Shown here in pieces: positions 1 through 31,005 of a stretch of DNA of 32,177 bases; within the stretch, counting starts at the first letter, position 1, and every line of letters begins with the position of its first letter. The stretch is from a virus. Location of the stretch: positions 1 to 32,177 of IMG/VR virus record IMGVR_UViG_3300036768_000051. The stretch is one strand, 5' to 3'. The translations under genes and the position numbers were made by a program. The notes beneath the pieces were generated by a model. The model ran no database searches and had not been told where the DNA came from. It saw nothing but the letters and a program-made list of their open reading frames with translations.

Positions 1-3000
1 CTCGCCTTTGAAGGCGCTCAAGCCCCCTACCTCCTCGAAGAGGTCGGGGGCTTTTTCTTTGGTGAACGCCGCCCACTCGGCCGCCGTGCGGCTTACATAC
101 GGCTTGCGGAACAGTTCACCCAACCGCTTATAGACGTTGGGCTTGGAGCGGCCACCTGCCGGCAGGTCCTCGCCACGGTAGCCGCGGGCTTCCTGGCGCA
201 CGGGCACAGCGCTGTGCCGGGGGCCCAACAGAACAGCAACACGCTGGTTGTTGCCAAACTCCGCCACATAGCCGTCGAAGCCGGCGTCGATGACTGCCGA
301 CTCAAAATCGCTGGCGTCACGACCCGCATGGATGTCCAGAGGGTCGGCGTCGCCATCGTAGAGGTTGTTAAGCTGGACAGTGTGCGGGTGTCCGCCAACG
401 CCAGCCTCGGGGAATACCCCACGGCCGTCGCTGACGTAAAAGTAGACGCGGTTGCGTAGCCGCGTGTCTTTGGCCGCGAATATCCGCTCGCGTTCCGCAC
501 CGCGAAGTCCGCGGCCGTAGTAGGCGCCGTTTAGACTTGTTCGCGGCTCGGTGCTGTAGTGGACACCTACCGCTTGGACGCTATTGGGATTAGCTTGCCC
601 GTACGTCGGTCTACTCGCATCCCCGGGTTGGCCTTCTCGGTAAGCCGATACAGCGCCTCCTCCATGGCGTTCTGGGCTGGCAGCATCGGATTCTGCTCCA
701 CGGCCTCCGCGTACCTCGGATGATCCGGCGTGTAGGTCTCGTTCGGATCGAGCGGCGTCGTCCCACCCGTATCGCTCTGCGAATTGGCGGTTGACGGCCT
801 CGACACGGGCACGAATGTCATCGGCCCTTGCGAGAAGATCGGGTCGTTGGGCCCGTAGTCTCTCCTGGTAACTTTCGCCATTTGGTGACTCCTTCCAATC
901 GTTGCTGATGTAGTCCCCGTCGGCACGGAAGGCCCGGTGATCTACAAGTCCGCCACCGAAATCGTCCGGTAGCGCTTCAAGAATATCACGGATTCCAGCC
1001 TGAAACTTTTTATTTGATAGCCCATCCTTGTAGTTTAGAACCCTAGCACCGGATGCCGTGTATCCGGGCGCCAGCTCCCAAGTGCCAAACTTGTCGTACA
1101 AGGCTTGGTAGAGCTGCTTGACCTCGGCCTCGGTCAGCGCCCGCTGGGTGACGATGTCGGCGCCGTTCTTGCGGCTCTCGGCTTCGTGGTAGATCGGGTG
1201 GTGCCAGACTACAGCGTCCTGGTGCAGAACGTAGCCCTTCATCGCGCTGTAGAGGTTCAACAGGTCCCGCGCCACCGGCAGTACGCTGCGGGCGGCGTTC
1301 TGTCCGGTCACGGGGGCGGGGAAGAATGATTGTGCGCCAGCACCAACGGCACCTTCCCAGGCGCTGAAGCCGAGCAAGGTGGGCGGGCTGTGAAGTCCCA
1401 CCGCCTGGGCAACCAGGTCCTCGCCGTTGGGTCCGGTAAGGGCCTTCATCACCGCTTTCAAGTACTCGGCCTTGCGCTCTGTGGTATCCGCATGAATGCC
1501 CGGAATGTCTCCAGCGTCTACGCTCGGCGTGGCCTCCCAGGAGAGTTGAACCAGGCGCGCGTTCAGGGCATCCGCGAAGTCGAACGCACGGGCGCTGATC
1601 TCCTCCTTGGTCACCGGGGCCGCCATGGCGATCTTGTGCGCCAAGCGGAAATGCTCGTAGGTCTTATCCTTGAGCACCTCATAAGAGCGTCCGTTCTTGA
1701 CTGCGATACCCTGTTTGATCTCCTCGGCTTCGCGCACTTTGGCGCTCAACTCCGTGCGCGCCTTGATGGCCGTCCAGACGGCCGCCTGGGCTTGGTGTGG
1801 TTTCCAGCCAAGTTCGGCGGCGAGACGCTTGATCTCAGCTTTTGCGAAGCGATATTTCGGCCCTTGGTCTAGCTTGGTAGAGCCGTAATCGAAGGCGATG
1901 GCCATCCACATATCCATGGTGGCGTGGTCGGGATCGACCTTGCTGGGGTCGATCTCCTCCATCAGGTCGGCGTAGAAGTTGTTGGTTTTGATGCCACCCC
2001 AATCCTTGCCGTCCCGCAGCCATGCGTTGGCCTTGGCGCTCATGGATGTGGGGAATAACCCCGTGCGGACCGGACGCCCGGACTTCCACTGGTAGTAGGC
2101 TTCCAGGGCGAAGCCCAAGTTGGTGTTTACGGGCGTAGACGGACTGTAGATGGCCAGCAGCCCGACAAACTTCTCGGCATCCACCTTATCACCGCCAGTC
2201 AGCTCCAGCACCGCTTTGGACGACTTCTCGTACCAGTAGCGCCCGGCCTCACCCTCCAGCGCCAACTGGCGCAGTTTCCTACGCAACTGCGTGAGTTGTG
2301 CCGAGGACTTCACCCAATCGGGGGCGCCCACATAGCTGCCGTCCGTAGCGCGGCGCTTGTGGCCCACGTCGGAGCTTGGCTTGCGGGGCGGGGCTGCTTG
2401 ATCCACCCCGGCCGTTCGGGCGCTTTCACCGCCGGCGCGCTGCTCTGTCAGGTAGTCGGCCATCGCCTTCGCGTAGGCCGCCTTCACGTCATCAATGTTG
2501 CGCAAATACTGCTCAACACGGAACCCGGGGCCGCTGCGCGCCACGAGGTTGCGCAAGTCCTGCAAGAACTTGTTCAGCCAGGTGGTGAGCCGTTCCAGTA
2601 CGGTGGGGGCCTTGCTGCCCTCGATCTCGCGCACACGGTCGAAGACGTCCTTCCAGAAGTTCGGGTCCGCGAAGCGGTTGCCCATCGCGTCGCCCATCAT
2701 CTCCTCGATGATGTCATGGCTCGGGGCCGTGTATTCCTCGTTCTGGTAGGCAGCCACGCGCTCGGCGTCGGTGTTCCGCAGAATCGCATCGCGCATGGCG
2801 CGGTAAACCGCGGGGTGCTTGCGCTCCAAGGTGTGCGCGAACTCATGGCCAAGCACCTGGAGGAAGCCAGTCTTGGCGCGCGTGTTGATGAAGACCGCCT
2901 CATCGTTGCCGCCGGCCCGGAACCCATCCCAGGACCCGGGGGCGGCGTCGTAGAACACCACCCGGCGCCCCAGGCGCTGGCCGAGGCCGATCAGGAAGTC

Positions 3001-6000
3001 CGCATCCTCGCCGGTGATCCTGCCATCTACGCCCCACCCAGGGGACAATCTCGTCTTGATTCGCGCGTCCGTGAGACTCCGTTGCCCATCGGGGCGCCGC
3101 GCATCACGCGCCACAGCATCCGCAAAAGACCGAGCATCCCGGGCGTTGATCCGGTCGCGCGGTTGACTCTCCGCAGGCCCGCTTGAAAGCGCTTCAGCTC
3201 CTTGGGATCGTTGTTGAGAAACGGCATGCTGATCTCCATTGACGTTGTTCAATACGGTGCCGCGCACTGCACGTTCCATTGTGGTGGCTGCGTCGTCGCC
3301 GAAGGCGCGGCTGTACTTGCGCACCAGACCCTCGTACTCCAGGGCCAGGCCCTGGGCGCGCTTCAACATATCACGGCGCACTACCTCCATCTCCTTGCTG
3401 GACAGAGTGCGGCCAGAGGGGGCCGTGTTGCTCTGGTTCAGCTCGGCGATTCTGCGAAGCTCATCCAGAACGTTCTCCATCTGCTGGCGCGTGTCGTTGT
3501 GCAGCTTCCCTGGTTCAGCTACGGAGGCGATGGGCGCGGGCACGGTGTTGGCTGCAGCGCGCTCTTCGGGGGTCAGATTCACGTGCCCACGCAGCAGATT
3601 ATCGAGCACGGACAGGTCCGTAATCGCCCGGGGGGACGGCACAAAGGGCTCTTCGCTGCGTTGTTCGGGCTGCACTACGGTGTCACCACCGTGGATGTGA
3701 GTGACGTTGGTATCGCCACCATGCACCAGCCATGGCTCTACCACGGGCGTGGTGGTTTCGGCTTCGCCATCAAACTCCCTGTTGGGGTGCTGCTCAGTGA
3801 TCGGCGACGGCGCTTCCGACACGGTGGTAGGGGAAGGTGCTTCCGGGGTGACGTCCCGCGTGTCAGGCTCCGGAGTGACGTCCCGCGTGTCAGGCTCCGG
3901 GGTTACGGCGGAGTGGGCCGCGGGCTCCACAGGCGGCACTGCGCCAGGCGGCACCACACCAGGCGGCACCACACCAGGCGGCACCGCGTCATGGGGCACT
4001 GCGCCAGGCGGCACCGCGTCATGGGGCAACACACCAGGCGGCACCGCGTCATGGGGCACTGCGCCAGGCGGCACCGCGTCATGGGGCGGGGTGCTGGTGA
4101 AGTCCGCGGGGCCCGACGGACGCCCGGGCTGCTGAGGCGTAGCCGGCGCGGAGGCGCGCCCGCCAGTGGGTGCATTCGGCGTTGCCGTCTGCGTTGCCGC
4201 GGTCCGTTGCATGGCGTCGCGCAGGGCCGCGCCCAGGGCGGTCTCAGGGTCTACCCGCTGGCCAGCGTCGGGCGGCAGTGTAACGGCGCGCCCCTCCGCC
4301 GGGGCCTGGCGCGCGTAATCCGACAGCGCAGTACCCAAGGCGTCGCGCTGTGCGGCATCAGCCGGCGGGGTGGCGTCAGCCGGTATGGTGATGCCGCGCC
4401 CCTCCACCGGGTGCTGACGCGCGTACTCTGACAGCGCAGCGCCCAAGGCATCGCGCTGCGCAGCGGTGGGTGCGGCGTTGGCGTTGGCGTTGGCGTTGGC
4501 GTTGGCGTTGGCGTTGGCGTTGGCGTTGAGTATCGCGGCGACTCGATTTCGTACCGCGCTCTGCCCGCGCTCGTAGCCGCGACGAATGCCATGGACGATT
4601 GTCGGGACGGCGGCCAGGGCGCCCGCGGAGACCCCCGCGGAAATGGCCGCCTCATTGGCATCCTTCAGCACCGCGTTCCAATCGATGGGCTCGCCGGCCA
4701 GCATGTAGCTAGTGACATCCTGGAGTACGTTCTGGGTCCACTCGGTAGGCATCTCCAAAGCGATCTCTCTTGCTACGTCCGCACCACCCTCACGCAGCAG
4801 CGTAGACATCGCGCCCGCTTTGATGTGGCTACCACCAAGGCGCTCTAGGGCGCGGAACAGCGGTAGCTCGCCCAGCGTATCCAGCACGCCAGCGACCGCG
4901 CCCACGCCCACCGCGGCCCCTGAGTGCAGTTCCCCGGTCTTATCTTGGTACGTGGATGCAGTGTCGCCGATGTTCACGGCCACGTTGGCGGGGGTAGAGC
5001 CGACGATAGCACCCTGCATGGCGCGCCGCTGAAGATGCTTTTGAGCCGCCTCGGCAACCGCAATGCGGGCTTGCTGTACTGCTTCCGCCTTGCTCACCGG
5101 AGAAAGCAGCGCGCCCCCATTGGAGGCAATGATCTCCGCCGCCTTGCGCTCCACGGCGCGGTCGATAGCCCCACGAGTAAAGTTAACCGCCGCCGCGCGG
5201 CCAAGGGCGCCAAGGGCCAGGCTGGGGCCCATCAAAGGGGCATTCTCGCCGGTCACCTCGCCAGCGTAAGTGAGCGCATTGCTAAGTCTAGTAACGAAGC
5301 GATCCCATGAAAATAAACGCTCGTTATATTGGACCCCCTTGTCGATATTATCGAGGCCCACCGCGGCGTGCGTGCGTGCGCTAACCGATTCCGGGGTTTC
5401 ATATTTCACCCCCTGGTCGAGGTTCTTGTAGCTCCCGATCTTCGCTGGGTAGCGGTCCGCTTCCGCTGCATGCGTCTGAGCTTTGTCAATGAAATCCCGG
5501 GAGGCGGCGTCGAAGTCCACCCCGAGAAAATCCTGTGCCCCCTTCGGTACCGCCCGCCCTGCCAGGTCGGAGGCCACCGCGCCAAGGTAGTCCCCCGTCG
5601 CCTGAAGGTTCTGCGAGCCCCGATACAAGGACGTGCCAAACTTCTGATCCTCTGGCGCGACCCTCGGGTCTGGCCCGATCCAAGAGGACGGATGGCCTTG
5701 CTGCAGCTCTCGTATTGCGACGGCCCGCGCCTGCTCCAGGGACAGCTTGGGGGCCTCGTGGTCGATGATGTCCTTCGCGCGCTTGTCCACCCAAGCGCGG
5801 ATTTCGGCTTGCTGCACCGGGCGTTGTGCGCGGGCAAAGCTGAAGTCGGGACGCTGCATCTGCTCGGTGGCCGCCTTGCGGCCGGCGGCGAGCGCCGCGC
5901 TGTCTGGGGTATTGAGGTCAATGGGGGACCGCACCAACGGTTGCGACGGCGGATTGATTATCCCTTCCAAAGCGCCATAACCGCCCAACTTGGAGGGTGC

Positions 6001-6423
6001 GGCATTGGTAGAAGGCGCGGGCGCTGGTGCGACGGACTTTTTCTCCTCCTCCTTGAGTTCGGTGGTGTAGAGCTTGCCGTTCCACTCGAAGGTTTTCTGA
6101 CCAGCCCTGCGGGCGGCGGAGAAAGCATCGCCAAACCCTACGGGCTCCTCGGCGGAAGTAGGTGCGGCGGGCGCGGGCGATACAGTGGCAGGGGGTGGTT
6201 CGGGCGCGTCGGAGAGAGTTGGTGCGGCGAGAGCAGGCGGAGCTGGCGCGACGGCAGGGGACGGCGCTGGCGCGGCGGAATCTTCATCATCCTCCCCCTT
6301 GAGTTCGGTGGTGTAGGGCTTGCCGTTCCACTCGAAGGTTTTCTGACCAGCCCTGCGGGCGGCGGCGAAGGCGTCACTGAACTTGGTAGCCGGAGCGTCT
6401 TCAATTATGCCGAAACCAGCCAT
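1..6423 (-). CDS. Giant polyvalent virion/ejection protein (partial, 3' end beyond window)
   Basis: An uninterrupted minus-strand frame runs from ATG at 6421-6423 to base 1, at least 2141 codons; I checked every codon for stops. The start has AAGGGG 8 nt upstream and follows the stop of the preceding virion gene by 2 nt. Visible layout: two copies of an ARRAGQKTFEWNGK motif (about residues 14-41 and 96-123); Ala/Gly-rich hydrophobic stretches near 502-515 and 594-611; (Asn-Ala)9 at 633-650; Pro-rich repeats at about 780-831; a zincin motif HEFAH at 1193-1197 with candidate third ligand E1240/E1241; a helical region at about 1382-1556 containing LLAIYSPSTPVNTN and MDMWM; and a C-terminal region from HYS (1955-1957) to about 2085 that resembles ADP-ribosyltransferase-like polyvalent domains. 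Proteins of this class are thought to be packaged and injected, and to act on host defences or DNA. Its place after the internal virion genes fits that. The domain calls are inferences from motifs. Confidence 0.9.
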   Translation of the reverse strand, partial: MAGFGIIEDAPATKFSDAFAAARRAGQKTFEWNGKPYTTELKGEDDEDSAAPAPSPAVAPAPPALAAPTLSDAPEPPPATVSPAPAAPTSAEEPVGFGDAFSAARRAGQKTFEWNGKLYTTELKEEEKKSVAPAPAPSTNAAPSKLGGYGALEGIINPPSQPLVRSPIDLNTPDSAALAAGRKAATEQMQRPDFSFARAQRPVQQAEIRAWVDKRAKDIIDHEAPKLSLEQARAVAIRELQQGHPSSWIGPDPRVAPEDQKFGTSLYRGSQNLQATGDYLGAVASDLAGRAVPKGAQDFLGVDFDAASRDFIDKAQTHAAEADRYPAKIGSYKNLDQGVKYETPESVSARTHAAVGLDNIDKGVQYNERLFSWDRFVTRLSNALTYAGEVTGENAPLMGPSLALGALGRAAAVNFTRGAIDRAVERKAAEIIASNGGALLSPVSKAEAVQQARIAVAEAAQKHLQRRAMQGAIVGSTPANVAVNIGDTASTYQDKTGELHSGAAVGVGAVAGVLDTLGELPLFRALERLGGSHIKAGAMSTLLREGGADVAREIALEMPTEWTQNVLQDVTSYMLAGEPIDWNAVLKDANEAAISAGVSAGALAAVPTIVHGIRRGYERGQSAVRNRVAAILNANANANANANANANANAAPTAAQRDALGAALSEYARQHPVEGRGITIPADATPPADAAQRDALGTALSDYARQAPAEGRAVTLPPDAGQRVDPETALGAALRDAMQRTAATQTATPNAPTGGRASAPATPQQPGRPSGPADFTSTPPHDAVPPGAVPHDAVPPGVLPHDAVPPGAVPHDAVPPGVVPPGVVPPGAVPPVEPAAHSAVTPEPDTRDVTPEPDTRDVTPEAPSPTTVSEAPSPITEQHPNREFDGEAETTTPVVEPWLVHGGDTNVTHIHGGDTVVQPEQRSEEPFVPSPRAITDLSVLDNLLRGHVNLTPEERAAANTVPAPIASVAEPGKLHNDTRQQMENVLDELRRIAELNQSNTAPSGRTLSSKEMEVVRRDMLKRAQGLALEYEGLVRKYSRAFGDDAATTMERAVRGTVLNNVNGDQHAVSQQRSQGAEALSSGPAESQPRDRINARDARSFADAVARDARRPDGQRSLTDARIKTRLSPGWGVDGRITGEDADFLIGLGQRLGRRVVFYDAAPGSWDGFRAGGNDEAVFINTRAKTGFLQVLGHEFAHTLERKHPAVYRAMRDAILRNTDAERVAAYQNEEYTAPSHDIIEEMMGDAMGNRFADPNFWKDVFDRVREIEGSKAPTVLERLTTWLNKFLQDLRNLVARSGPGFRVEQYLRNIDDVKAAYAKAMADYLTEQRAGGESARTAGVDQAAPPRKPSSDVGHKRRATDGSYVGAPDWVKSSAQLTQLRRKLRQLALEGEAGRYWYEKSSKAVLELTGGDKVDAEKFVGLLAIYSPSTPVNTNLGFALEAYYQWKSGRPVRTGLFPTSMSAKANAWLRDGKDWGGIKTNNFYADLMEEIDPSKVDPDHATMDMWMAIAFDYGSTKLDQGPKYRFAKAEIKRLAAELGWKPHQAQAAVWTAIKARTELSAKVREAEEIKQGIAVKNGRSYEVLKDKTYEHFRLAHKIAMAAPVTKEEISARAFDFADALNARLVQLSWEATPSVDAGDIPGIHADTTERKAEYLKAVMKALTGPNGEDLVAQAVGLHSPPTLLGFSAWEGAVGAGAQSFFPAPVTGQNAARSVLPVARDLLNLYSAMKGYVLHQDAVVWHHPIYHEAESRKNGADIVTQRALTEAEVKQLYQALYDKFGTWELAPGYTASGARVLNYKDGLSNKKFQAGIRDILEALPDDFGGGLVDHRAFRADGDYISNDWKESPNGESYQERLRAQRPDLLARADDIRARVEAVNRQFAERYGWDDAARSERDLHAGSSEVRGGRGAESDAASPERHGGGAVSAYREGQPGDASRPTYGQANPNSVQAVGVHYSTEPRTSLNGAYYGRGLRGAERERIFAAKDTRLRNRVYFYVSDGRGVFPEAGVGGHPHTVQLNNLYDGDADPLDIHAGRDASDFESAVIDAGFDGYVAEFGNNQRVAVLLGPRHSAVPVRQEARGYRGEDLPAGGRSKPNVYKRLGELFRKPYVSRTAAEWAAFTKEKAPDLFEEVGGLSAFKGE
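22..60 (+). terminator. Terminator-like hairpin on the plus strand inside the giant gene
   Basis: Bases 22-33 (gccccctacctc) pair with 40-51 (gaggtcgggggc), with one G-T-type mismatch and a 6-nt loop, followed on the plus strand by TTTTTCTTT at 52-60. This has the form of a strong intrinsic terminator for rightward transcripts, yet it lies antisense inside an open leftward reading frame. It may stop antisense transcription, mark the end of a convergent gene left of the window, or be chance. Confidence 0.4.
3933..4085 (-). repeat. 15/30-bp tandem repeats encoding a Pro-rich linker
   Basis: The plus strand alternates units such as aggcggcaccgcgtcatggg and aggcggcaccacacc in multiples of 15 bp. 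They encode PPGAVPHDAV-type repeats at residues about 780-831 of the giant protein. Just beyond (3842-3900) a 24-bp unit encoding TPEPDTRD is present twice. The array probably forms an extended flexible linker between the N-terminal region and the protease region, and could vary in length between isolates. Confidence 0.9.
4474..4527 (-). repeat. Hexanucleotide microsatellite (GGCGTT)9
   Basis: Nine perfect copies of the 6-bp unit encode (Asn-Ala)9 at residues 633-650 of the giant protein. Because the unit is a multiple of three, slippage would change linker length without breaking the frame. Confidence 0.95.
6052..6126 (-). repeat. 75-bp direct repeat, copy B (pair of 6298-6372)
   Basis: This stretch is nearly identical at the nucleotide level to 6298-6372; I count only a few differences. 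Both encode the motif GQKTFEWNGK[P/L]YTTEL near the N-terminus of the giant protein. The near-identity suggests a recent in-frame duplication of a short binding or packaging motif. Confidence 0.9.
6298..6372 (-). repeat. 75-bp direct repeat, copy A (pair of 6052-6126)
   Basis: First copy, in translation order, of the motif-encoding direct repeat at the N-terminus of the giant protein (residues about 18-42). The pair is offset by 246 bp, a multiple of three, so the frame is kept. Confidence 0.9.
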
Positions 6424-6425
6424 GC

Positions 6426-8012
6426 TTAGTTCCCCTTGATCTGTGCCAGTGCCCGTCGGATCTCTTCGCGTGTCCAGCCCTTGGCGCGGGCCGATGCTAT
6501 CCGGTCCTCGTCACTGACGTCTGCGGCGAGATAGGACTTCAACGGGCTGATGTCGCGCATCTTGACCTCCCTGGAGGACCAGGCCGTGAAGTCGGGGTCG
6601 TTACCGTAGAGCCGCTGCCTGGAGAGGGCCAAAGCGCTCGCCAGCTCCTTGTCGTTCTTGGCCATCTCACTCACATTCATGCCGGCGGCGGCCATGGCGT
6701 TCACGCGGTTGCGTGCGGCGATCACCTGCTCGTTGGTGCGCTGCTGGGCGAGGGTGAGCTTGTCGCCGGAGCTAGCGCCGCCGGAGCTAGCGCCGCCGGA
6801 GCGAGCGCCGCCGGAGCGAGCGCCGCCGGAGCGAGCGCCGCCGGAGCGCGTAGGCACGGTCGGGACTTTCTCCGCTACGGGGCCCCAATCGATTTGGCCA
6901 TCGGTACGCATGCGCCAATACTGCACCTGTCCCGTAGCGGGATTCTTTCCAATGCCATGCCATGCGGTAGTCCCGCCCGGATTGAGCTCATCCTTGGTCG
7001 GCACTGCGTGGACCAATTGATCGCCCCTGAGAATGTGAGACCCGGGGGTAGCAACGAGGTACTTGCGGGCCTCCTGGGCATCCTCCCGGTTGGCCTTATA
7101 CATCAGCATCGCCTGATTCTCGGGCGACAGCACGCCCAGCCCCATGGTGGCGATGTCGTCGTAGTTGCCCGTGAACTGGCGCACCACATTGCCGGTGTCG
7201 TTGTCACGAACCTGCACGACGTAGGTGTCATCGTTGCCCCCGCTGGGCGCCAACACCACATGGCGGTTGTCCTCCACCTGGTCGTTGTAGAGGTTTTGGA
7301 GCTTCAGGAGAGTACCGGCCTTATCGCCCATGCGGTACGAAGTCATAGCATCAAGCCACCCGGCGCTAAATCGTCTGTTCTTGCTGTCCTGCGCCCACTG
7401 GCGGAACGCCTCCGCGTCCTTCACGCGGCCTTGGCTCTCCAGCTTCGCTATCACGCCGGGCAGGTATTTCTCTTGGAAAATCTGCGTCTGATCGCGGGCG
7501 GGGATCGTGGTCTGCACGCCGTAGCCCGGCAACGCCGTTTTCTCCTCAGCGTAGGCGCCCCCGGGCGTGGCATAGCCGCGCTCGAAAACGCGCGGTTCCT
7601 CGCGCACCTGGGGCGGCTCTGCCAAACTAGTGCGGGCACGGGCATCCGCACCTGACAGCGCGTAAGTGCGCACGCCTTTGTCGCGGCCCGCGGAGTCGAG
7701 CATTGCACGGTCGCGCATGAACTCCTGTCGGGCGCCATTCTGCAGGTCGCGGATGTCGTTCTCCTGGCCTACGATCATGTCCGCCACGCCCTGTCTTCCA
7801 GTCGCGTAGTGGTTGTCAGCGGTGTCCACGCCGTACCCACGGGTGATCTGATCCTCCGGCAGTACGTCCACGGTGCGCCCACTGTTCGCGGCTTCGCGGG
7901 CGGCGGCCGCCTGACCCTCGTCGTAGAGCTTGCGCACCTCCCGCGCATCGAGGGCGTCGCTGATTTCGTTCCCCAGCCCCCAGCCCGCCTGAAGTCCCTC
8001 TAAGAAGCCCAT
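6426..8012 (-). CDS. Putative internal virion (ejection) protein, 528 aa
   Basis: I do not recognise a named domain. The protein starts MGFLEGLQAGWG, a Gly-rich amphipathic N-terminus common in podovirus ejection proteins, and continues with helical, Gln/Ala/Arg-rich sequence. An SGGAR/SGGAS linker (about residues 390-416) separates it from a C-terminal helical region. ATG at 8010-8012 has GGGAG 6 nt upstream. It sits between a gp14-like internal protein gene and the giant gene, the place occupied in T7-like phages by the gp15/gp16 ejection proteins. The role is inferred from position and composition, not from a catalytic motif. Confidence 0.8.
   Translation of the reverse strand: MGFLEGLQAGWGLGNEISDALDAREVRKLYDEGQAAAAREAANSGRTVDVLPEDQITRGYGVDTADNHYATGRQGVADMIVGQENDIRDLQNGARQEFMRDRAMLDSAGRDKGVRTYALSGADARARTSLAEPPQVREEPRVFERGYATPGGAYAEEKTALPGYGVQTTIPARDQTQIFQEKYLPGVIAKLESQGRVKDAEAFRQWAQDSKNRRFSAGWLDAMTSYRMGDKAGTLLKLQNLYNDQVEDNRHVVLAPSGGNDDTYVVQVRDNDTGNVVRQFTGNYDDIATMGLGVLSPENQAMLMYKANREDAQEARKYLVATPGSHILRGDQLVHAVPTKDELNPGGTTAWHGIGKNPATGQVQYWRMRTDGQIDWGPVAEKVPTVPTRSGGARSGGARSGGARSGGASSGGASSGDKLTLAQQRTNEQVIAARNRVNAMAAAGMNVSEMAKNDKELASALALSRQRLYGNDPDFTAWSSREVKMRDISPLKSYLAADVSDEDRIASARAKGWTREEIRRALAQIKGN
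6764..6848 (-). repeat. 15-bp tandem repeats encoding SGGA(R/S)S linker
   Basis: Five to six copies of a gccgccggagcgagc-like 15-bp unit encode three SGGAR and two SGGAS pentapeptides inside the ejection protein. It is likely a flexible hinge. Confidence 0.9.
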
Positions 8013-8055: not shown

Positions 8056-8850
8056 TTAAGGCCACTTCCGCAAGCCTATCCCTGCGCCCATGCCCACGAT
8101 GCCGCCGAGCATGTTCATGGTGCCGTTGTGCGCCGCAACCTCATTGGCATAGCCGGCGTTGAGGATGTTGGCAGACTGGCCTATGGCGTTGACACCGCCC
8201 TGGTACCAGTTCTGCGCCGCACCCATGTTGTTACTGACCGAACCCGCGGTGCTGTTCATGTTGCTCACTGCCGAGTTGCCGGCATTGAGTGCGATGCCAT
8301 AATTGGTGGACGCCTGCGCCGGCAAACCGCGCCCCAGACTGGCGGCGTCGACCTGGCGGGCCCAGCCCATGTCCTCCACCTGCTTGCGGGCGGTGTTGGC
8401 TGCGTGGGCCATATCCCTGGCCTGCGCAATATTCATCCTGTAATCGTTGCTGAGGGCGGCCCCGGAGGTCGGGTCGATGCCGAAGGCCCCCTGCTGGCGA
8501 AGCTGCGTGGCGCGCGCCTTGTCGTAGGCCTGAATGACATCCGATTCCGCTTTGCCGGCCTCCAGCTCCTGACGTGCTGGGGTGACATAGTCGCGCGCCT
8601 GGCGGACCATGTCGTCTTCCATGGTGCCGAAGGTGTTCCGATACCGATTGCGATCCTCTACGGCAAGCTGTTGGTTCTCGCGCATGATGTCGAGCTGATC
8701 GCCCAGAACACTCCGCGCCAAGTCCAACTGCTCGGTGCCCAGGGTCTTGGCCCAATCCAACTGCTCACGGCCAAGCGCCACCTGCTCCAGGCCTACCTTC
8801 TCGGAGGCCGCCGCAGAGGAAGAAAGATCAGGGGGTTTCGGTGCGCACAT
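8056..8850 (-). CDS. Putative internal virion protein B-like (gp14-like), 264 aa
   Basis: The first half is a long Gln/Glu/Arg-rich helix, probably coiled coil (about residues 17-120). The second half is Asn/Gly/Ala/Ser-rich and ends in a hydrophobic glycine-rich segment (MLGGIVGMGAGIG). This design is typical of podovirus internal core proteins that insert into the host envelope during DNA ejection. ATG at 8848-8850 follows AGGAG by 6 nt. The start overlaps the 3' end of the upstream GNAT gene by 23 bp, suggesting coupling. A 43-bp gap with no visible signal separates it from the next gene. Sequence identity to T7 gp14 is not claimed; the call rests on composition and gene order. Confidence 0.8.
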   Translation of the reverse strand: MCAPKPPDLSSSAAASEKVGLEQVALGREQLDWAKTLGTEQLDLARSVLGDQLDIMRENQQLAVEDRNRYRNTFGTMEDDMVRQARDYVTPARQELEAGKAESDVIQAYDKARATQLRQQGAFGIDPTSGAALSNDYRMNIAQARDMAHAANTARKQVEDMGWARQVDAASLGRGLPAQASTNYGIALNAGNSAVSNMNSTAGSVSNNMGAAQNWYQGGVNAIGQSANILNAGYANEVAAHNGTMNMLGGIVGMGAGIGLRKWP

Positions 8851-9460
8851 GGTGCTCTCCTATTAGCTTGACGAACTCCGTCCCCACGGAGGTGTAGCCA
8901 GCAAACTCCAGAACCTTGGCCGCGGCCTGATTGGCATGCTTCACGCTCGCGTGAAACTCTCGCGCTCCAATTCGGGCGGCTATGCGCTCCGCGTAGTGGA
9001 GGAAGTGTGTAGCCAAGAGCCCCTTGCGGTGCTCTTTGGCGATGAAGTAGGTATCTTCCTGCGCGCACAGCGCTTGGGTGTGCCGGCTGGTGAAGAGGTA
9101 CCCGCCAAAGTGGCCAACCAACAGCCCGGCCTTGCGTAAGGTGAGCTGGATGTACTGGCCGGCGCGCTCCTGGGCGATGTAGCCCTGGTAGTCTGGGTTC
9201 AGGGGTCCGTAGGTCTCAGGGCCCTTGATCTCCTCCCAGTGGGCGAGGTGTAGGTGCCGCAGCTCGGGGAGGATGTCGGCGATGCTCTCGGCGGCGAACA
9301 CATACCCTTGGTAAGTTTCGCTGGGGCAGTTCCGCCAGTGGGAGGCGTCCGGCGCGGGCTTGGAGACCCTCGATAACCTCAAGCAGATGCCGTCGATCAA
9401 CTCCTGCGTGATTACGTTGCCGCGATTGGCGCGCAGCGCCTCATAGACGAACTCAATCAT
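8828..9460 (-). CDS. GNAT-like acetyltransferase fold protein, internal virion protein A-like
   Basis: The 210-residue protein has the look of the GNAT fold: a central strand-turn region (YFIAKEHRKGLLATHFLHYAE) followed by a C-terminal part (ANQAAAKVLEFAGYTSVGTEFVKL), where an Asn and the AGY turn usually lie in acetyltransferases. T7 gp13 (internal virion protein A) is also GNAT-like and lies just before gp14, which matches the order here. I chose ATG at 9458-9460 because AAGGAG lies 6 nt upstream; a GTG at 9484 is in frame but lacks a good ribosome site. Whether it acetylates anything or is structural cannot be told from sequence. Confidence 0.8.
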   Translation of the reverse strand: MIEFVYEALRANRGNVITQELIDGICLRLSRVSKPAPDASHWRNCPSETYQGYVFAAESIADILPELRHLHLAHWEEIKGPETYGPLNPDYQGYIAQERAGQYIQLTLRKAGLLVGHFGGYLFTSRHTQALCAQEDTYFIAKEHRKGLLATHFLHYAERIAARIGAREFHASVKHANQAAAKVLEFAGYTSVGTEFVKLIGEHHVRTETP

Positions 9461-9492
9461 GCCAAGCTCCTTGATCGACGACACCTATGGTA

Positions 9493-9687
9493 TCAGTCCT
9501 GCAACCGCCGCAGAATCTCGTTGATCTTGGCGATGACCTCAGCGTTGCTGGCGTTCGCCGGAAGCTCCCCGATGCGCCCGCCGCGGCGCCCCGTGACGAT
9601 CTCCAGGTTGCTCTGAATCGCACGCAGGTATTCCGCCATCGGGGTGCTCGGCTGCGGGGGTAAAGCGGGGACGCCGGGCTTCTTCAT
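9493..9687 (-). CDS. Small conserved podovirus structural protein, 64 aa
   Basis: A 64-residue protein with a Pro-rich start (MKKPGVPALPPQP), a central helix ending in ITGRRGG-like TGRRGGRIGELP, and a C-terminal helix AEVIAKINEILRRLQD. Small proteins of this pattern are common between the tail-nozzle gene and the internal virion genes of podoviruses; their role is unknown to me. The start overlaps the stop of the preceding gene as TGATG, so the two are probably translationally coupled. Confidence 0.85.
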   Translation of the reverse strand: MKKPGVPALPPQPSTPMAEYLRAIQSNLEIVTGRRGGRIGELPANASNAEVIAKINEILRRLQD

Positions 9688-11735
9688 CAGGCGGCCTTCA
9701 GCACTGTCGGGTTCTCACCAACCACAACGGAATGCACCCGCACGCTGCCAAGGATGCGTACCGAGAAGTTGTCCGCCTTGTAGCCCGAGGGCATGCGGAA
9801 CGTCCCCGTGCCCGCGTCCACCGTGCGCGAATAGATCAAGCGGTCGTCCGTCCAAAGCTCGAAGGTCAGGCTCTCGACGACAAGGTCAGGAGGCGTTTCG
9901 AGTCCGTCACCGTTGATCTCGTAGCCTGCCCCCAGGGTCTCAGCGTTCAGACTGCCTCCCACGTCCGTCGCCAGCAGCATGTTGTTGGCGGCAATGATTG
10001 CCGCCCGCTGGGCAGTGCGGGCAGCTACCTCGGCTGGGTCCATTGTGAAGTCGGCCTCCACGCGCGCCGCCGTGAGAGTGATCGGGCTCGGCAGGACAAA
10101 GCGCTTCGAGAACCACTCGGACGCAATGCGGGCCGCCTTGTTGGCGTCCCATTGATAAACGTGCGAGCCGTTCACGTAGAACAGCTCACCCGCGTAGAGA
10201 TCGGAGAAGAGTGCCGTGCAGTTCAGGTTCAGCGTGACGAGGATGGCCGCACCCCCAGAGCGGTCCAGGATGAAGCCCAGCGGGTTGCCGAGATCGTCCT
10301 GGCGCACTGCTACGTAGCGGCCATCGTGGACGGCAGCGAACAGCGTCTCGGGTCGTATGGCCTTCCACTCGTCGCGGCTGTATAGGTCGCGGGTCACTAC
10401 CTCGGTGCCATTCACCCCCACCAGGATCAGCCCCACATGGCTGGGGAACATCACTCCGAAGTCCAGCGATACGCAGCCGCGTTTGCTGATGCAGGGATAC
10501 TCCACGCCCGCCATGGTGAGAGAGATCGTCTCCGGGTCGGTACCGTTGGCGATGTAGGGGTGCCCCTCGGTGGCCACCACCGCGGTGTTCGAGAACACCC
10601 CCAAGGCCACGCCTCGGTAGGCCATGGTGCGCCGGTAGGCAACGGGCCACGCATGCGGACGGTAGGGCACCGAGAAGCACAGCTCGTTACCTGATATGCC
10701 CGCGAGGCCCCCACCGGGTAGCACCACGATGCTGTGCAGGTCGGTCGGGGGCATGTCCCACTCTTCAGAGGGCAGGGTCTCCCCCAGGGCGATGTCGGCC
10801 ACCGTGTCGGTGTAGGTGGTGTTGGCGACAGGAATCTCCGCCACAAACTGGTATTCGGTAGCCTCGCTGCCGGTGTTGGTGCGATAGATGCGCTTCACCA
10901 TGCCGCTGGTGTTGAACGGCGCCCGGCGGCTCCAGGTGTCTCCGGTGTCCACGGCGTTGTTGTAGGTACCCGTAGGCGGGCTCGTAACGGTGAAGGTCAT
11001 GGTCTTGGCAGTCTCATCCACTGCTGTGAGCTGCCAAGTGCCGTTGACGCCGGTGACCGTGGTAACACCGGCCACGGTGATTTCGTCGCCCACGCGGTTG
11101 ACGTGGGCCGCGCTAGTGGTAATCGTCACCTGCGTACCGGCGTAGGCCAGGGCGGTGATGTCGCCGCTGTTTGGCGGGGCCACGGACAGTCCCGAGAGGG
11201 CCACACCCTGCCCCGTCTGGATGGTGACGGTGGCCGCATCGGACGGCGCTGACTCTTCGCCCCATTGGGTCACGAAGGTGTAGACGTAGGCGCGGGTGAC
11301 GTTGGGCGCCACACCGCTCCCGGAGGGCGCCAGGGTGGGCGCCGCACGAGGGTGCGGAACTCCCAGGGCGTAGAACTGCTTGGGGTAATCAGAACCGCCG
11401 CCAGCGCCCGCCAGGGCGTAGTTGGTGACGCGCGGTTCACCGTCGCCGGTGTAATAGATGCGCCCGCTGGTGTCCCCGGCGATTGGCCCGGGAACCACGT
11501 TCACGTCGCGGTCCCAAGCCAGCCAGAGGGTGCCCGCGGCGGCTCTCAGGCGGTACAACGTCTTGGGCGCACTCACGCCCGCCAGCGCTGCCACGTCCGA
11601 AGGCGCGAAGACGGGGTTGATGTCCCCGTTGTAGAGCTTCAGGTTGGCCGCCACCCGTGCCGCGTTGTCCGGCAACAAATGTGCAGCAAGGCGGGGAATC
11701 TCGCCGCTGAACCCCTGGATGCGGGCTGCGAACAT
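9687..11735 (-). CDS. Tail nozzle/stabilisation-type protein (putative beta-propeller), 682 aa
   Basis: A large, beta-rich protein with many Gly/Asp turns and repeated aromatic-strand patterns (KTLYRLRAAAGTLWLAW, SIVVLPGGGLAGISGNELCFS, AVHDGRYVAVRQDD). An inserted Thr-rich domain (about residues 175-270) looks Ig-like. Proteins of this size and style in podoviruses form the tail nozzle or DNA-stabilisation propeller (T7 gp12 / P22 gp10 class) that seals the portal channel. It lies downstream of the adaptor-type genes and directly upstream of a small conserved protein and the ejection genes, which fits. ATG at 11733-11735 with GAGG 7 nt upstream. The fold assignment is inference. Confidence 0.85.
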   Translation of the reverse strand: MFAARIQGFSGEIPRLAAHLLPDNAARVAANLKLYNGDINPVFAPSDVAALAGVSAPKTLYRLRAAAGTLWLAWDRDVNVVPGPIAGDTSGRIYYTGDGEPRVTNYALAGAGGGSDYPKQFYALGVPHPRAAPTLAPSGSGVAPNVTRAYVYTFVTQWGEESAPSDAATVTIQTGQGVALSGLSVAPPNSGDITALAYAGTQVTITTSAAHVNRVGDEITVAGVTTVTGVNGTWQLTAVDETAKTMTFTVTSPPTGTYNNAVDTGDTWSRRAPFNTSGMVKRIYRTNTGSEATEYQFVAEIPVANTTYTDTVADIALGETLPSEEWDMPPTDLHSIVVLPGGGLAGISGNELCFSVPYRPHAWPVAYRRTMAYRGVALGVFSNTAVVATEGHPYIANGTDPETISLTMAGVEYPCISKRGCVSLDFGVMFPSHVGLILVGVNGTEVVTRDLYSRDEWKAIRPETLFAAVHDGRYVAVRQDDLGNPLGFILDRSGGAAILVTLNLNCTALFSDLYAGELFYVNGSHVYQWDANKAARIASEWFSKRFVLPSPITLTAARVEADFTMDPAEVAARTAQRAAIIAANNMLLATDVGGSLNAETLGAGYEINGDGLETPPDLVVESLTFELWTDDRLIYSRTVDAGTGTFRMPSGYKADNFSVRILGSVRVHSVVVGENPTVLKAA

Positions 11736-14854: not shown

Positions 14855-16134
14855 GGGCTACTCCTTTTGAGTGTCGCGTATCGGGTGGTCCGCGCTTCTG
14901 GCGCGGACCGCAGTGACTGCGCCAGAGACGCGGTCACTGTGGATCGCACAAGGCGGGACGGCAATCCTCGCCAAGCTACGCCGGATAAAGTTGCACCCAC
15001 ACCAGACAGTGCCGAAGTCGTGTTGTGTGCGCCCCCAAGCGCCGCGGAGCCGGTGAGGCTCGCACCAGCGCCATACAACACCGAAGCGGCGCTGTGTACG
15101 TGTGTGAGCGCTGCGGAGCCGGTGAGGCTCGCACCAGCACCAGACAGTGCCGAAGTCGTGTTGTGTGCGCCCCCAAGCGCCGCGGAGCCGGTGAGGCTCG
15201 CACCAGCGCCAGACAGGGCCGAAGCAGCGTAGTGGACGCACGTACGCGCCGCAGAGCCGGTGAGGCTCGCACCAGCGCCAGACAGGGCCGAAGCTGAACT
15301 AGCCGCTGCTATCGCCTGCGAACCTACTGCGAAGGCACCTATAGCCGCGCCAGACAGTGCTGAAGCCGCGTCGTGGACGCCACCACCGCCAACATTGAAA
15401 TACAGCACGCGCCTGGGTGGCTTAAAGATTTGCCACGGGTTGCGAGATAGCGCTTGCGCATACGCATTCGGGTCGCCACGTGGATAGAATAGCGCTGCTA
15501 ATGACAGCTCGGCGGTAAGACCAATCGTATCCCGGGACGACCCAATCTTGACCTGGCCCTGGCCAGGAACGTACGTTGGTGAGCTAGATATCGTCCCTGA
15601 CCGTATTAATACGCCGTCACGGTAGAGCGCTAAATTGCTGGCGAATTGCAGTCCGACGAATGTATGCGGACGGTTATCCAGCAGGTCGTTGACGGTGCCC
15701 AGATTAGTGAAGTCAGCCCCGCTAGTTGCCCCATTCGTGTTATAAACTCGTAGCGTGTCATTGCTTGAATATCGCTGCCAAGCCCACCCTTGCGCCGTAC
15801 CGTTGTCCGATGTGCGGCTGAAGATACCGGCCCATGTAGCCAGCCCAGACAAGCTACCGTGCAGCACCCACATATAGTTGACCGGCGCGCCAGCCGTTGG
15901 GTCCAGAAGGAAATCCGCCCCTGATGTCAGCTTGCGGGTATTTCCTAAACTGCCTCCGCTGGTTGACCGCGTGCCGCCGCCACCAGTAACAGCCAATTTG
16001 CCCGCTATATCTTGCCAGCCTTGCGCCGCTGGGAGCAGGGCCGCGTGCAGACCATTAGCACGCGCCTCGGCGGAGATTTCGAGCAGTCCCGTCGGCTGCC
16101 TCTGAAACCTCCTTGGCAGGATCAGGTTAGCCAC
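14851..16134 (-). CDS. LamG/concanavalin-like virion protein with 23-residue repeats, 427 aa
   Basis: Residues about 85-225 have the pattern of a LamG-type jelly roll (PHTFVGLQFASNLALYRDGV, then VKIGSSRDTIGLTAELSLAA) and close with NPWQIFKPPRRVLYF, an ending often seen in such phage proteins. These domains generally bind carbohydrate. The C-terminal third consists of about five 23-residue repeats with the core ALSGAGASLTGSAAL. GTG start at 16132-16134, with no strong ribosome site but only 3 nt after the preceding stop, so coupling is likely. The final 40 residues are Arg-rich and unlike the rest, possibly a degenerate end. Confidence 0.8.
   Translation of the reverse strand: MANLILPRRFQRQPTGLLEISAEARANGLHAALLPAAQGWQDIAGKLAVTGGGGTRSTSGGSLGNTRKLTSGADFLLDPTAGAPVNYMWVLHGSLSGLATWAGIFSRTSDNGTAQGWAWQRYSSNDTLRVYNTNGATSGADFTNLGTVNDLLDNRPHTFVGLQFASNLALYRDGVLIRSGTISSSPTYVPGQGQVKIGSSRDTIGLTAELSLAALFYPRGDPNAYAQALSRNPWQIFKPPRRVLYFNVGGGGVHDAASALSGAAIGAFAVGSQAIAAASSASALSGAGASLTGSAARTCVHYAASALSGAGASLTGSAALGGAHNTTSALSGAGASLTGSAALTHVHSAASVLYGAGASLTGSAALGGAHNTTSALSGVGATLSGVAWRGLPSRLVRSTVTASLAQSLRSAPEARTTRYATLKRSSP
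14985..15300 (-). repeat. 69-bp tandem repeat array in the LamG-like gene
   Basis: The string ccggtgaggctcgcaccag recurs at intervals of exactly 69 bp (starts about 15050, 15119, 15188, 15257), with a degenerate copy on the left side. Each unit encodes 23 residues around SALSGAGASLTGSAAL. Two units that are not adjacent are nearly identical, suggesting unequal recombination within the array. Confidence 0.9.
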
Positions 16135-30809: not shown

Positions 30810-30826
30810 CATAGATGCCATCTATG
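30810..30826. promoter_or_regulatory. 17-bp perfect palindrome, operator-like
   Basis: catagatg-c-catctatg has 8-bp arms and a single central base. It lies 110 bp upstream of the paralogue A start and directly beside the 84-bp repeat. Such dyads are typical binding sites of dimeric regulators. Confidence 0.5.
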
Positions 30827-30907
30827 CTTCAGCGGAGTTCCATCGAAAACATCTATAAGTGAGTGGTCACTTACGCTGTAGGCCAGTAACGGCGCGGGTT
30901 GTGCTCG
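30824..30907 (-). repeat. 84-bp direct repeat, copy 2
   Basis: Matches 30922-31005 over 84 bp with only about 10 differences, period 98 bp. It runs from atgcttcagcggagttcca through the 18-bp inverted repeat (30856-30873) to gcgggttgtgctcg. Read on the minus strand it encodes STTRAVTGLQRK-stop, then the inverted repeat, then ATGGAACTCCGC and a stop. Confidence 0.85.
30856..30873. promoter_or_regulatory. 18-bp inverted repeat, copy 2 (operator-like)
   Basis: Identical to 29683-29700 and 30954-30971. On the minus strand it is followed by TATAGATGTTTTCGATGGAA, nearly the same sequence that follows copy 1. Confidence 0.75.
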
Positions 30908-30921
30908 GATTGATATTTTCA

Positions 30922-31005
30922 ATGCTTAAGCGGAGTTCCATTGAAAAAGCCAATAAGTGAGTGGTCACTTACGCTGCAGGCCAGTAACGGCGCGGGTTGT
31001 GCTCG
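30922..31005 (-). repeat. 84-bp direct repeat, copy 3, with micro-ORF
   Basis: Tandem partner of 30824-30907. Between the inverted repeats of copies 3 and 2, the minus strand holds a 24-codon frame that opens ATGGAACTCCGC (30939-30941 as start) and ends in the shared TGLQRK-stop. Its start resembles that of the zinc-finger gene's long form and its end that of the 60-residue gene, as if a gene had been deleted down to its two ends. Confidence 0.8.
30954..30971. promoter_or_regulatory. 18-bp inverted repeat, copy 3 (operator-like)
   Basis: Third identical copy of the taagtga/tcactta dyad. On the minus strand it is followed by TTGGCTTTTTCAATGGAA. Confidence 0.75.

What the first reader, a model, noticed from the sequence alone, without database searches (positions are those of the whole stretch)
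1..6423. Very large open frame combining protease, glycosylase-like and ADP-ribosyltransferase-like regions
The frame is open for at least 2141 codons and has no stop before the window edge, so the protein is longer still. HEFAH (1193-1197) with a Glu about 45 residues downstream is visible. The region with LLAIYSPSTPVNTN and MDMWM recalls HhH-GPD-type DNA glycosylases, and the C-terminal HYS...YFYV...FDGYV region recalls ADP-ribosyltransferase-like domains. One protein with several candidate activities, encoded last in the ejection block, fits a delivered anti-defence or host-takeover protein.
Basis: partly seen in the sequence, partly recalled or inferred. Interest (0 to 1): 0.68.

Follow-up and report, generated by a model that had tools for sequence, protein, structure and literature searches.

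The report
Giant phage protein with three enzymes
A very long phage protein, encoded in the block of genes for proteins that are injected with the viral DNA, carries a protease-like domain, a domain shaped like a DNA-repair enzyme that cuts bases out of DNA, and a domain shaped like an enzyme that tags host proteins with ADP-ribose; such 'polyvalent' phage proteins are known, but the base-cutting part is not in the standard description of them.

Summary
The frame is real: 2141 codons on the minus strand (6423 to 1), open at the contig edge, with a ribosome-binding site and coding-type base composition. (1) Zincin-like protease: H1193, E1194, H1197 and E1241 are invariant in 10 of 10 distinct relatives. 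(2) Residues 1370-1558 are Pfam DUF7178. An AlphaFold model (pLDDT 95) best matches type-2 8-oxoguanine DNA glycosylases (Z 10-11). K1479 and D1504 align with the catalytic Lys and Asp, W1550 with the base-stacking Trp, and Q1546 falls on the base-contacting position; all four are invariant in 59 of 59 sequences. (3) Residues about 1939-2081 model as an ADP-ribosyltransferase fold (nearest RES toxins, the diphtheria-toxin catalytic domain and AcrIF11) with a conserved H-Y-D set. A two-lobed partner domain of unknown function follows the glycosylase. Relatives shuffle these domains, so this is a polyvalent protein in the sense of Iyer et al. 2017, in the ejection-protein position of a T7-like podovirus. 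Injection, activity and substrates are inferred, not shown. The base-excision domain does not occur in that paper's text, but free-standing relatives are already called 'glycosylase' in some phage records. New variant of a known kind.

The parts
1..6423 (-). Giant open frame, at least 2141 aa, 3' end cut by the contig edge
6298..6381 (-). N-terminal short module copy 1 (aa 15-42, FSDAFAAARRAGQKTFEWNGKPYTTELK)
   Evidence: same module in many unrelated phage proteins
6052..6135 (-). N-terminal short module copy 2 (aa 97-124)
4564..5256 (-). Ala/Gly-rich stretch holding the most hydrophobic segments (aa 390-620)
   Evidence: hydropathy and composition
3709..4530 (-). Low-complexity linker (aa 632-905): (Asn-Ala) repeat, then Pro-rich repeats
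   Evidence: tandem repeats 3842-4087 and 4474-4528; composition
2401..3018 (-). Zincin-like metallopeptidase domain (aa 1136-1341)
2833..2847 (-). HEFAH zinc-binding motif (aa 1193-1197)
   Evidence: HExxH invariant 10/10
2701..2703 (-). E1241, predicted third zinc ligand
   Evidence: invariant 10/10
1750..2316 (-). DUF7178 = HhH-GPD (OGG2-like) N-glycosylase domain (aa 1370-1558)
   Evidence: Pfam PF23802 E 3.9e-12; AF2 pLDDT 95.4; Z 10.3-11.0 to type-2 Ogg
1987..1989 (-). K1479, aligned with the catalytic Lys of OGG2
   Evidence: invariant 59/59; hhalign
1912..1914 (-). D1504, aligned with the catalytic Asp of OGG2
   Evidence: invariant 59/59; hhalign; spacing
1774..1788 (-). Q1546...W1550, positions of the base-contacting Asp and base-stacking Trp of OGG2
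   Evidence: invariant 59/59; 4-residue spacing as in OGG2; roles from PMC3397491
769..1593 (-). Partner domain (aa 1611-1885): two ferredoxin-like (beta-alpha-beta-beta-alpha-beta) repeats, function unknown
   Evidence: AF2 secondary structure; conserved residues; next to the glycosylase in most large relatives
181..609 (-). ADP-ribosyltransferase-fold domain (aa 1939-2081) with H1955, Y1969, D2050
   Evidence: AF2 model; Foldseek and VIA-align matches dominated by ART folds; conservation
6426..8012 (-). Upstream gene, virion structural protein family (phrog_9667)
8056..8850 (-). Virion structural protein family (phrog_8003)
9687..11735 (-). Internal virion protein family (phrog_511)
   Evidence: E 7.6e-145

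Best explanation
This is a polyvalent ejection protein of a T7-like podovirus. Shown by sequence or model: (a) the N-terminal half is short modules, Ala/Gly-rich hydrophobic stretches and low-complexity linkers; (b) the C-terminal half holds a zincin-type metallopeptidase, an HhH-GPD nucleobase glycosylase of OGG2-like fold with a full catalytic set, a two-lobed partner domain, and an H-Y-D ADP-ribosyltransferase; (c) relatives carry the same domains in different order and number. Inferred: the protein is packaged and passes into the cell with the first DNA; the peptidase cuts the polyprotein (before or after ejection) to free the enzymes; the glycosylase flips and excises a non-standard base from DNA (its invariant Lys would allow Schiff-base strand cleavage); the ART transfers ADP-ribose from NAD+ to a host protein, plausibly a defence or transcription factor. 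The target base and target protein are unknown.
For: Frame and coding signal. Genome position after internal virion protein and virion-structural families. Zincin: HExxH plus E1241 invariant in 10/10 distinct homologues. Glycosylase: DUF7178 match; AF2 pLDDT 95.4; the top four VIA-align rows are all type-2 Ogg at Z 10.3-11.0, 166-177 of about 207 residues, rmsd 3.5-4.1, ahead of the next row at Z 8.4; profile-profile match to OGG2 with P 0.0007, K on K, D on D, W on W, with like spacing. ART: nearly all VIA-align rows are ART folds (MbcT Z 6.3, ParT 6.1, diphtheria-toxin catalytic domain 5.4, AcrIF11 4.5), and the best Foldseek hit is AcrIF11. H1955 and D2050 are invariant in 21/21 and Y1969 in 20/21, the same H-Y-D set that Iyer et al. 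2017 give for ARTs of polyvalent proteins. AcrIF11 also depends on an H, a Y and a D/E pair (PMC12421852). Domain shuffling: ZIN-GLY-PAR-ART2, ZIN-ART2-GLY-PAR, GLY-PAR-ART2-ARTPV, ARTPV-GLY-ART2 and others.
Against: No experiment shows the protein in virions or any activity. The window protein has no Pfam match to PF00730, PF22175 or PF18760, and Foldseek alone is weak for both models (E at best 0.4 and 0.07). The ART Z-scores (6.3 and below) lie in the range that common arrangements can reach; the case rests on the list being nearly all ARTs. The zincin fold was not modelled. The OGG2 C-terminal lysine that reads 8-oxoG cannot be present in mid-chain, so 8-oxoG is not implied as substrate. 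The protein is truncated by the contig edge.
Confidence: 0.7

Rival explanations
1. The enzyme-like domains are catalytically dead and serve as folded cargo or scaffold in a structural ejection protein, as for the large core proteins of T7-like phages.
For: Position in the ejection block; large hydrophobic and low-complexity N-terminal half; some relatives have lost the HExxH.
Against: All four expected active-site positions of the glycosylase are invariant in 59/59, the zinc ligands in 10/10, H and D of the ART in 21/21. The window copy keeps every one.
Confidence: 0.15
2. The HhH-GPD domain acts on a nucleotide, nucleoside or RNA base rather than on DNA, like the queuine salvage enzyme DUF2419.
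For: The fifth VIA-align row is human DUF2419 at Z 8.4. The fused partner domain could change the substrate.
Against: The four OGG2 rows score higher, and the K...D...Q...W set matches that of OGG DNA glycosylases in order and spacing. Whether DUF2419 shares that set was not tested.
Confidence: 0.2
3. The giant frame is an assembly artefact or a fusion of separate genes.
For: Perfect (GGCGTT)9 and other tandem repeats lie in the frame, places where assemblies go wrong; the contig ends inside the gene.
Against: The repeat units are multiples of three and keep the frame. Independent contigs and cultured phage DC33 hold single frames of 2600-3850 aa with the same domains.
Confidence: 0.03

Closest known systems
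Polyvalent proteins of phages and conjugative elements (Iyer et al. 2017, PMC5512222)
   Same: Very large phage protein joining a zincin-like peptidase, an H-Y-D ART and other enzymes; modular shuffling; predicted injection.
   Different: A DNA glycosylase (HhH-GPD) domain does not occur in the main text ('glycosylase' has 0 occurrences; its online supplements were not readable here). The window's ART is a divergent branch with no PF18760 hit.
DUF7178 (PF23802, phrog_3842): free-standing phage proteins of about 200 aa
   Same: Same domain; K, D, Q, W invariant in all 11 free-standing copies compared. Found in 145 phage records; some are annotated 'glycosylase' or 'N-glycosylase/DNA lyase'.
   Different: Here fused into a giant protein in the virion block, with a partner domain that the free-standing copies lack.
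Type-2 8-oxoguanine DNA glycosylases (OGG2; PF22175; MjOgg, SsOgg, TmOgg)
   Same: Fold (Z 10-11) and catalytic Lys, Asp and stacking Trp in register.
   Different: About 10% identity; Asp194 of MjaOGG2 is replaced by Gln (as in OGG1 Q315); no C-terminal lysine for 8-oxoG reading.
AcrIF11 (phage anti-CRISPR ART) and RES-domain toxins (ParT, MbcT)
   Same: ART fold; AcrIF11 also depends on H, Y and D/E residues.
   Different: Free-standing small proteins with known targets; no sequence match found here to solved structures.
ART-PolyVal (PF18760)
   Same: H...Y...GYDG pattern; hhalign P 0.002 in register at GFDG/GYDG; both ART types sit in one protein in several relatives.
   Different: A separate family: no Pfam hit for the window domain.

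Membership tests
Polyvalent proteins | Several disparate enzymatic domains in one phage- or plasmid-encoded polypeptide | tested here: met
   Zincin, HhH-GPD and ART domains in one frame
Polyvalent proteins | Mosaic domain order across relatives | tested here: met
   More than ten domain orders among relatives
Polyvalent proteins | Injected into the host with DNA | not testable with these tools
   Only gene position supports it
Zincin-like metallopeptidase | HExxH plus downstream Glu | tested here: met
   H1193, E1194, H1197, E1241 invariant 10/10
Zincin-like metallopeptidase | Zincin fold | not tested
HhH-GPD superfamily | HhH-GPD fold | tested here: met
   AF2 model matches OGG2 at Z 10.3-11.0; Foldseek alone weak
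HhH-GPD superfamily | Catalytic Asp, and Lys in bifunctional members | tested here: met
   K1479 and D1504 invariant 59/59 and aligned with OGG2 Lys and Asp
HhH-GPD superfamily | Direct match to the PF00730 or PF22175 profile | tested here: not met
   Only DUF7178 found at E up to 1; this is a sequence-sensitivity test, not the defining fold or catalytic set
OGG2 family proper | Strictly conserved C-terminal lysine that reads 8-oxoG | tested here: not met
   The domain lies in mid-chain and the frame continues
ART superfamily | ART fold | tested here: met
   Nearly all VIA-align rows are ARTs, Z up to 6.3; core pLDDT mostly above 80
Tox-ART-HYD2 / ART-PolyVal clade | His in strand 1, Tyr in strand 2, Asp in strand 5 | tested here: inconclusive
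   H1955 and D2050 invariant 21/21, Y1969 20/21. H1955 lies in the first long strand and D2050 just before a later one, but Y1969 falls in a short helix in the model
ART-PolyVal PF18760 | Match to the Pfam profile | tested here: not met
   No hit for the window protein

The most novel reading that the evidence does not exclude
DUF7178 is a phage-specific clade of base-excision enzymes, used both as a free-standing phage protein and, in giant polyvalent proteins, carried in the virion, so that a DNA glycosylase acts on host or incoming DNA at the moment of infection: a virion-borne counterpart of the glycosylases that bacteria use against phages.
Probability: 0.35. Interest if true: 0.75.

Novelty: new variant of a known kind. 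Interest (0 to 1): 0.52.

Why it matters
It gives a testable activity, with named catalytic residues, to a Pfam domain of unknown function found in at least 202 viral-contig stretches and 145 phage records. It also suggests that some phages inject a base-excision enzyme, while bacterial DNA glycosylases are known anti-phage defences (PMC11078745, found). That would add base excision to the chemistry that phages may deliver before any gene is expressed.

Tried and rejected
NCBIfam, PDB-sequence and plasmid searches found nothing. Extending the contig was impossible: the record is the window. A relative search with the short ART query found none, and the ART alignment had no stretch conserved enough to search with; the DC33 copy as query worked. 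The narrow DUF7178 profile against OGG2 was weak (Prob 2, score 21.4, with 20 column-shuffled controls at or below 17.9); adding free-standing members raised it to Prob 27, P 0.0007. The partner domain's matches to RND-pump porter domains (Z 8.2) and phage SAM lyase (Z 7.6) were judged a common ferredoxin-like arrangement and not used. No queried paper links DUF7178 or a glycosylase to polyvalent proteins. The idea that the third region is the true C-terminus was rejected.

Full report
What is there. The minus-strand frame 6423..1 is open for 2141 codons and runs off the contig. It is coding: GC by codon position is 0.69/0.50/0.74, the other sense frames hold 53 and 63 stops, chance of no stop is about 10^-25, and an AGGGG site lies upstream of the ATG. 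The record is a 32,177-base viral fragment equal to the window, so nothing further left can be read.

Surroundings. Upstream on the same strand lie, in order away from the giant gene, a virion structural protein family (phrog_9667), another (phrog_8003), a GNAT acetyltransferase, and a 682-aa internal virion protein family (phrog_511), then tail-fibre-type genes, two structural proteins, and further off the major head protein, portal/adaptor and large terminase. This is a T7-like podovirus order; the giant gene sits where T7-like phages encode their ejected core proteins (established knowledge; ejection itself is inferred).

N-terminal half. Two copies of a short module (aa 15-42 and 97-124), then Ala/Gly-rich stretches holding the most hydrophobic segments (about aa 390-620), then low-complexity linkers made by tandem repeats (aa about 632-905).

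Zincin. Iterative search of fetched relatives gave 10 distinct sequences in which H1193, E1194, H1197 and E1241 never vary. The motif alone could be chance in so long a protein; the joint invariance with a third ligand is not. Some more distant relatives have lost the HExxH.

Glycosylase. Residues 1392-1556 match Pfam DUF7178 (E 3.9e-12). An alignment of 48 relatives gave an AlphaFold model of aa 1353-1890 at pLDDT 95.4, pTM 0.91. VIA-align puts four type-2 8-oxoguanine glycosylases first (3n0u Z 11.0, 3knt 10.7, 3fhf 10.4, 3fhg 10.3); the next row, DUF2419 queuine salvage, has Z 8.4. Foldseek alone is weak (AGOG 7ou3, probability 0.90, E 0.42). OGG2 sequences were then drawn from bacterial genomes by the PF22175 profile, and a profile of 59 DUF7178 sequences, 11 of them free-standing phage proteins, was compared with 12 of them. 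The match (P 0.00068, probability 27) puts K1479 on the catalytic Lys, D1504 on the catalytic Asp and W1550 on the Trp. Spacing agrees: Lys-Asp 19 in OGG2 and 17-21 in free-standing DUF7178; Asp-Trp 51 versus 46-57; base-contact residue to Trp 4 in both. In MjaOGG2 these last two are Asp194 and Trp198, and Asp194 is equivalent to Gln315 of human OGG1 (PMC3397491); DUF7178 has an invariant Gln there. The OGG2 C-terminal lysine that recognises 8-oxoG cannot be present in mid-chain, so the substrate is open.

Partner domain. Residues 1611-1885 form two beta-alpha-beta-beta-alpha-beta lobes with many conserved polar residues, and follow the glycosylase in most large relatives, not in the free-standing proteins. 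No function is assigned.

ART. An alignment of 21 sequences gave a model of aa 1892-2141 with a confident core. Nearly all VIA-align rows are ARTs: MbcT, ParT, Xre-RES toxins, diphtheria-toxin catalytic domain, AcrIF11, PARPs, Tpt1; best Foldseek hit AcrIF11. H1955 and D2050 are invariant in 21/21, Y1969 in 20/21. Iyer et al. describe the ARTs of polyvalent proteins as H-Y-D. AcrIF11 depends on H20/Y46 and D146/E147, and ADP-ribosylates a CRISPR protein.

Relatives. At least 202 stretches in IMG/VR encode DUF7178 relatives and 8 loci in bacterial genome contigs. Frames of 2600-3850 aa carry the same domains in many orders. Phage zth2-2 and Limnohabitans phage DC33 hold divergent DUF7178 plus the ART-like domain. 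Free-standing DUF7178 occurs in 145 phage records, in several close to a genome end (Anabaena phage A-4L, Lentibacter phage ICBM1, Rhodococcus phage Francesca), and a few are named glycosylase.

How it most likely works. Packaged and ejected; self- or cross-processed by the zincin (suggested by Iyer et al. for such peptidases); the glycosylase removes a non-standard base from DNA; the ART modifies a host protein. Steps shown: domains, folds and active-site residues. Steps inferred: delivery, processing, activity, targets.

Verdict. The class is known; the base-excision member of it is new in the literature searched here, with the caveat that free-standing relatives already bear the name glycosylase in some records.

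Noticed in passing
window 6298-6381 and 6052-6135 (-); L176-L182; L183-L262: A module of about 28 residues (FxxAFxxARxxGxxxFxWxGKxYxT) occurs twice at the N-terminus here and at the N-terminus, middle or exact C-terminus of unrelated phage proteins: microviruses, a crAss-like phage, autographiviruses, a tail lysozyme. At least 273 of the first 600 pattern matches in IMG/VR were confirmed. No Pfam hit in the window protein, no PHROG profile covers the copies scanned, and no paper holds the string. It could be a mobile packaging or processing tag; no function was tested.
   Followed up: partly
window 8828-9484 (-): A GNAT acetyltransferase gene sits inside the virion-protein block, overlapping the next structural gene; GNATs are also known parts of polyvalent proteins.
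   Followed up: no
window 4474-4528: Perfect (GGCGTT)9 hexamer repeat encoding (Asn-Ala)n in the linker; it would change linker length without shifting frame.
   Followed up: no
window 14993-15294: 69-base unit repeated about 4 times inside a 427-aa frame that matches no PHROG or Pfam family.
   Followed up: no
window 30824-31005: 98-base direct repeat, nearly two copies, in the last, lower-GC part of the window with no clear gene; possible regulatory repeat.
   Followed up: no
L011 (PQ492659, Limnohabitans phage DC33): The record's taxonomy line says Inoviridae, yet the 39-kb genome encodes a 3125-aa polyvalent protein like those of tailed phages; the label looks wrong.
   Followed up: no
L143 (CALMKG010000075.1): A contig filed under a Propionibacterium MAG encodes the DUF7178 copy closest to the window's (75% identity); probably a phage contig placed in the wrong bin.
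   Followed up: no
L012 and L263 (OL791268, phage zth2-2): The giant gene appears to run across the start of the circular record: its DUF7178 part is at the end of the record and its ART part at the beginning.
   Followed up: partly
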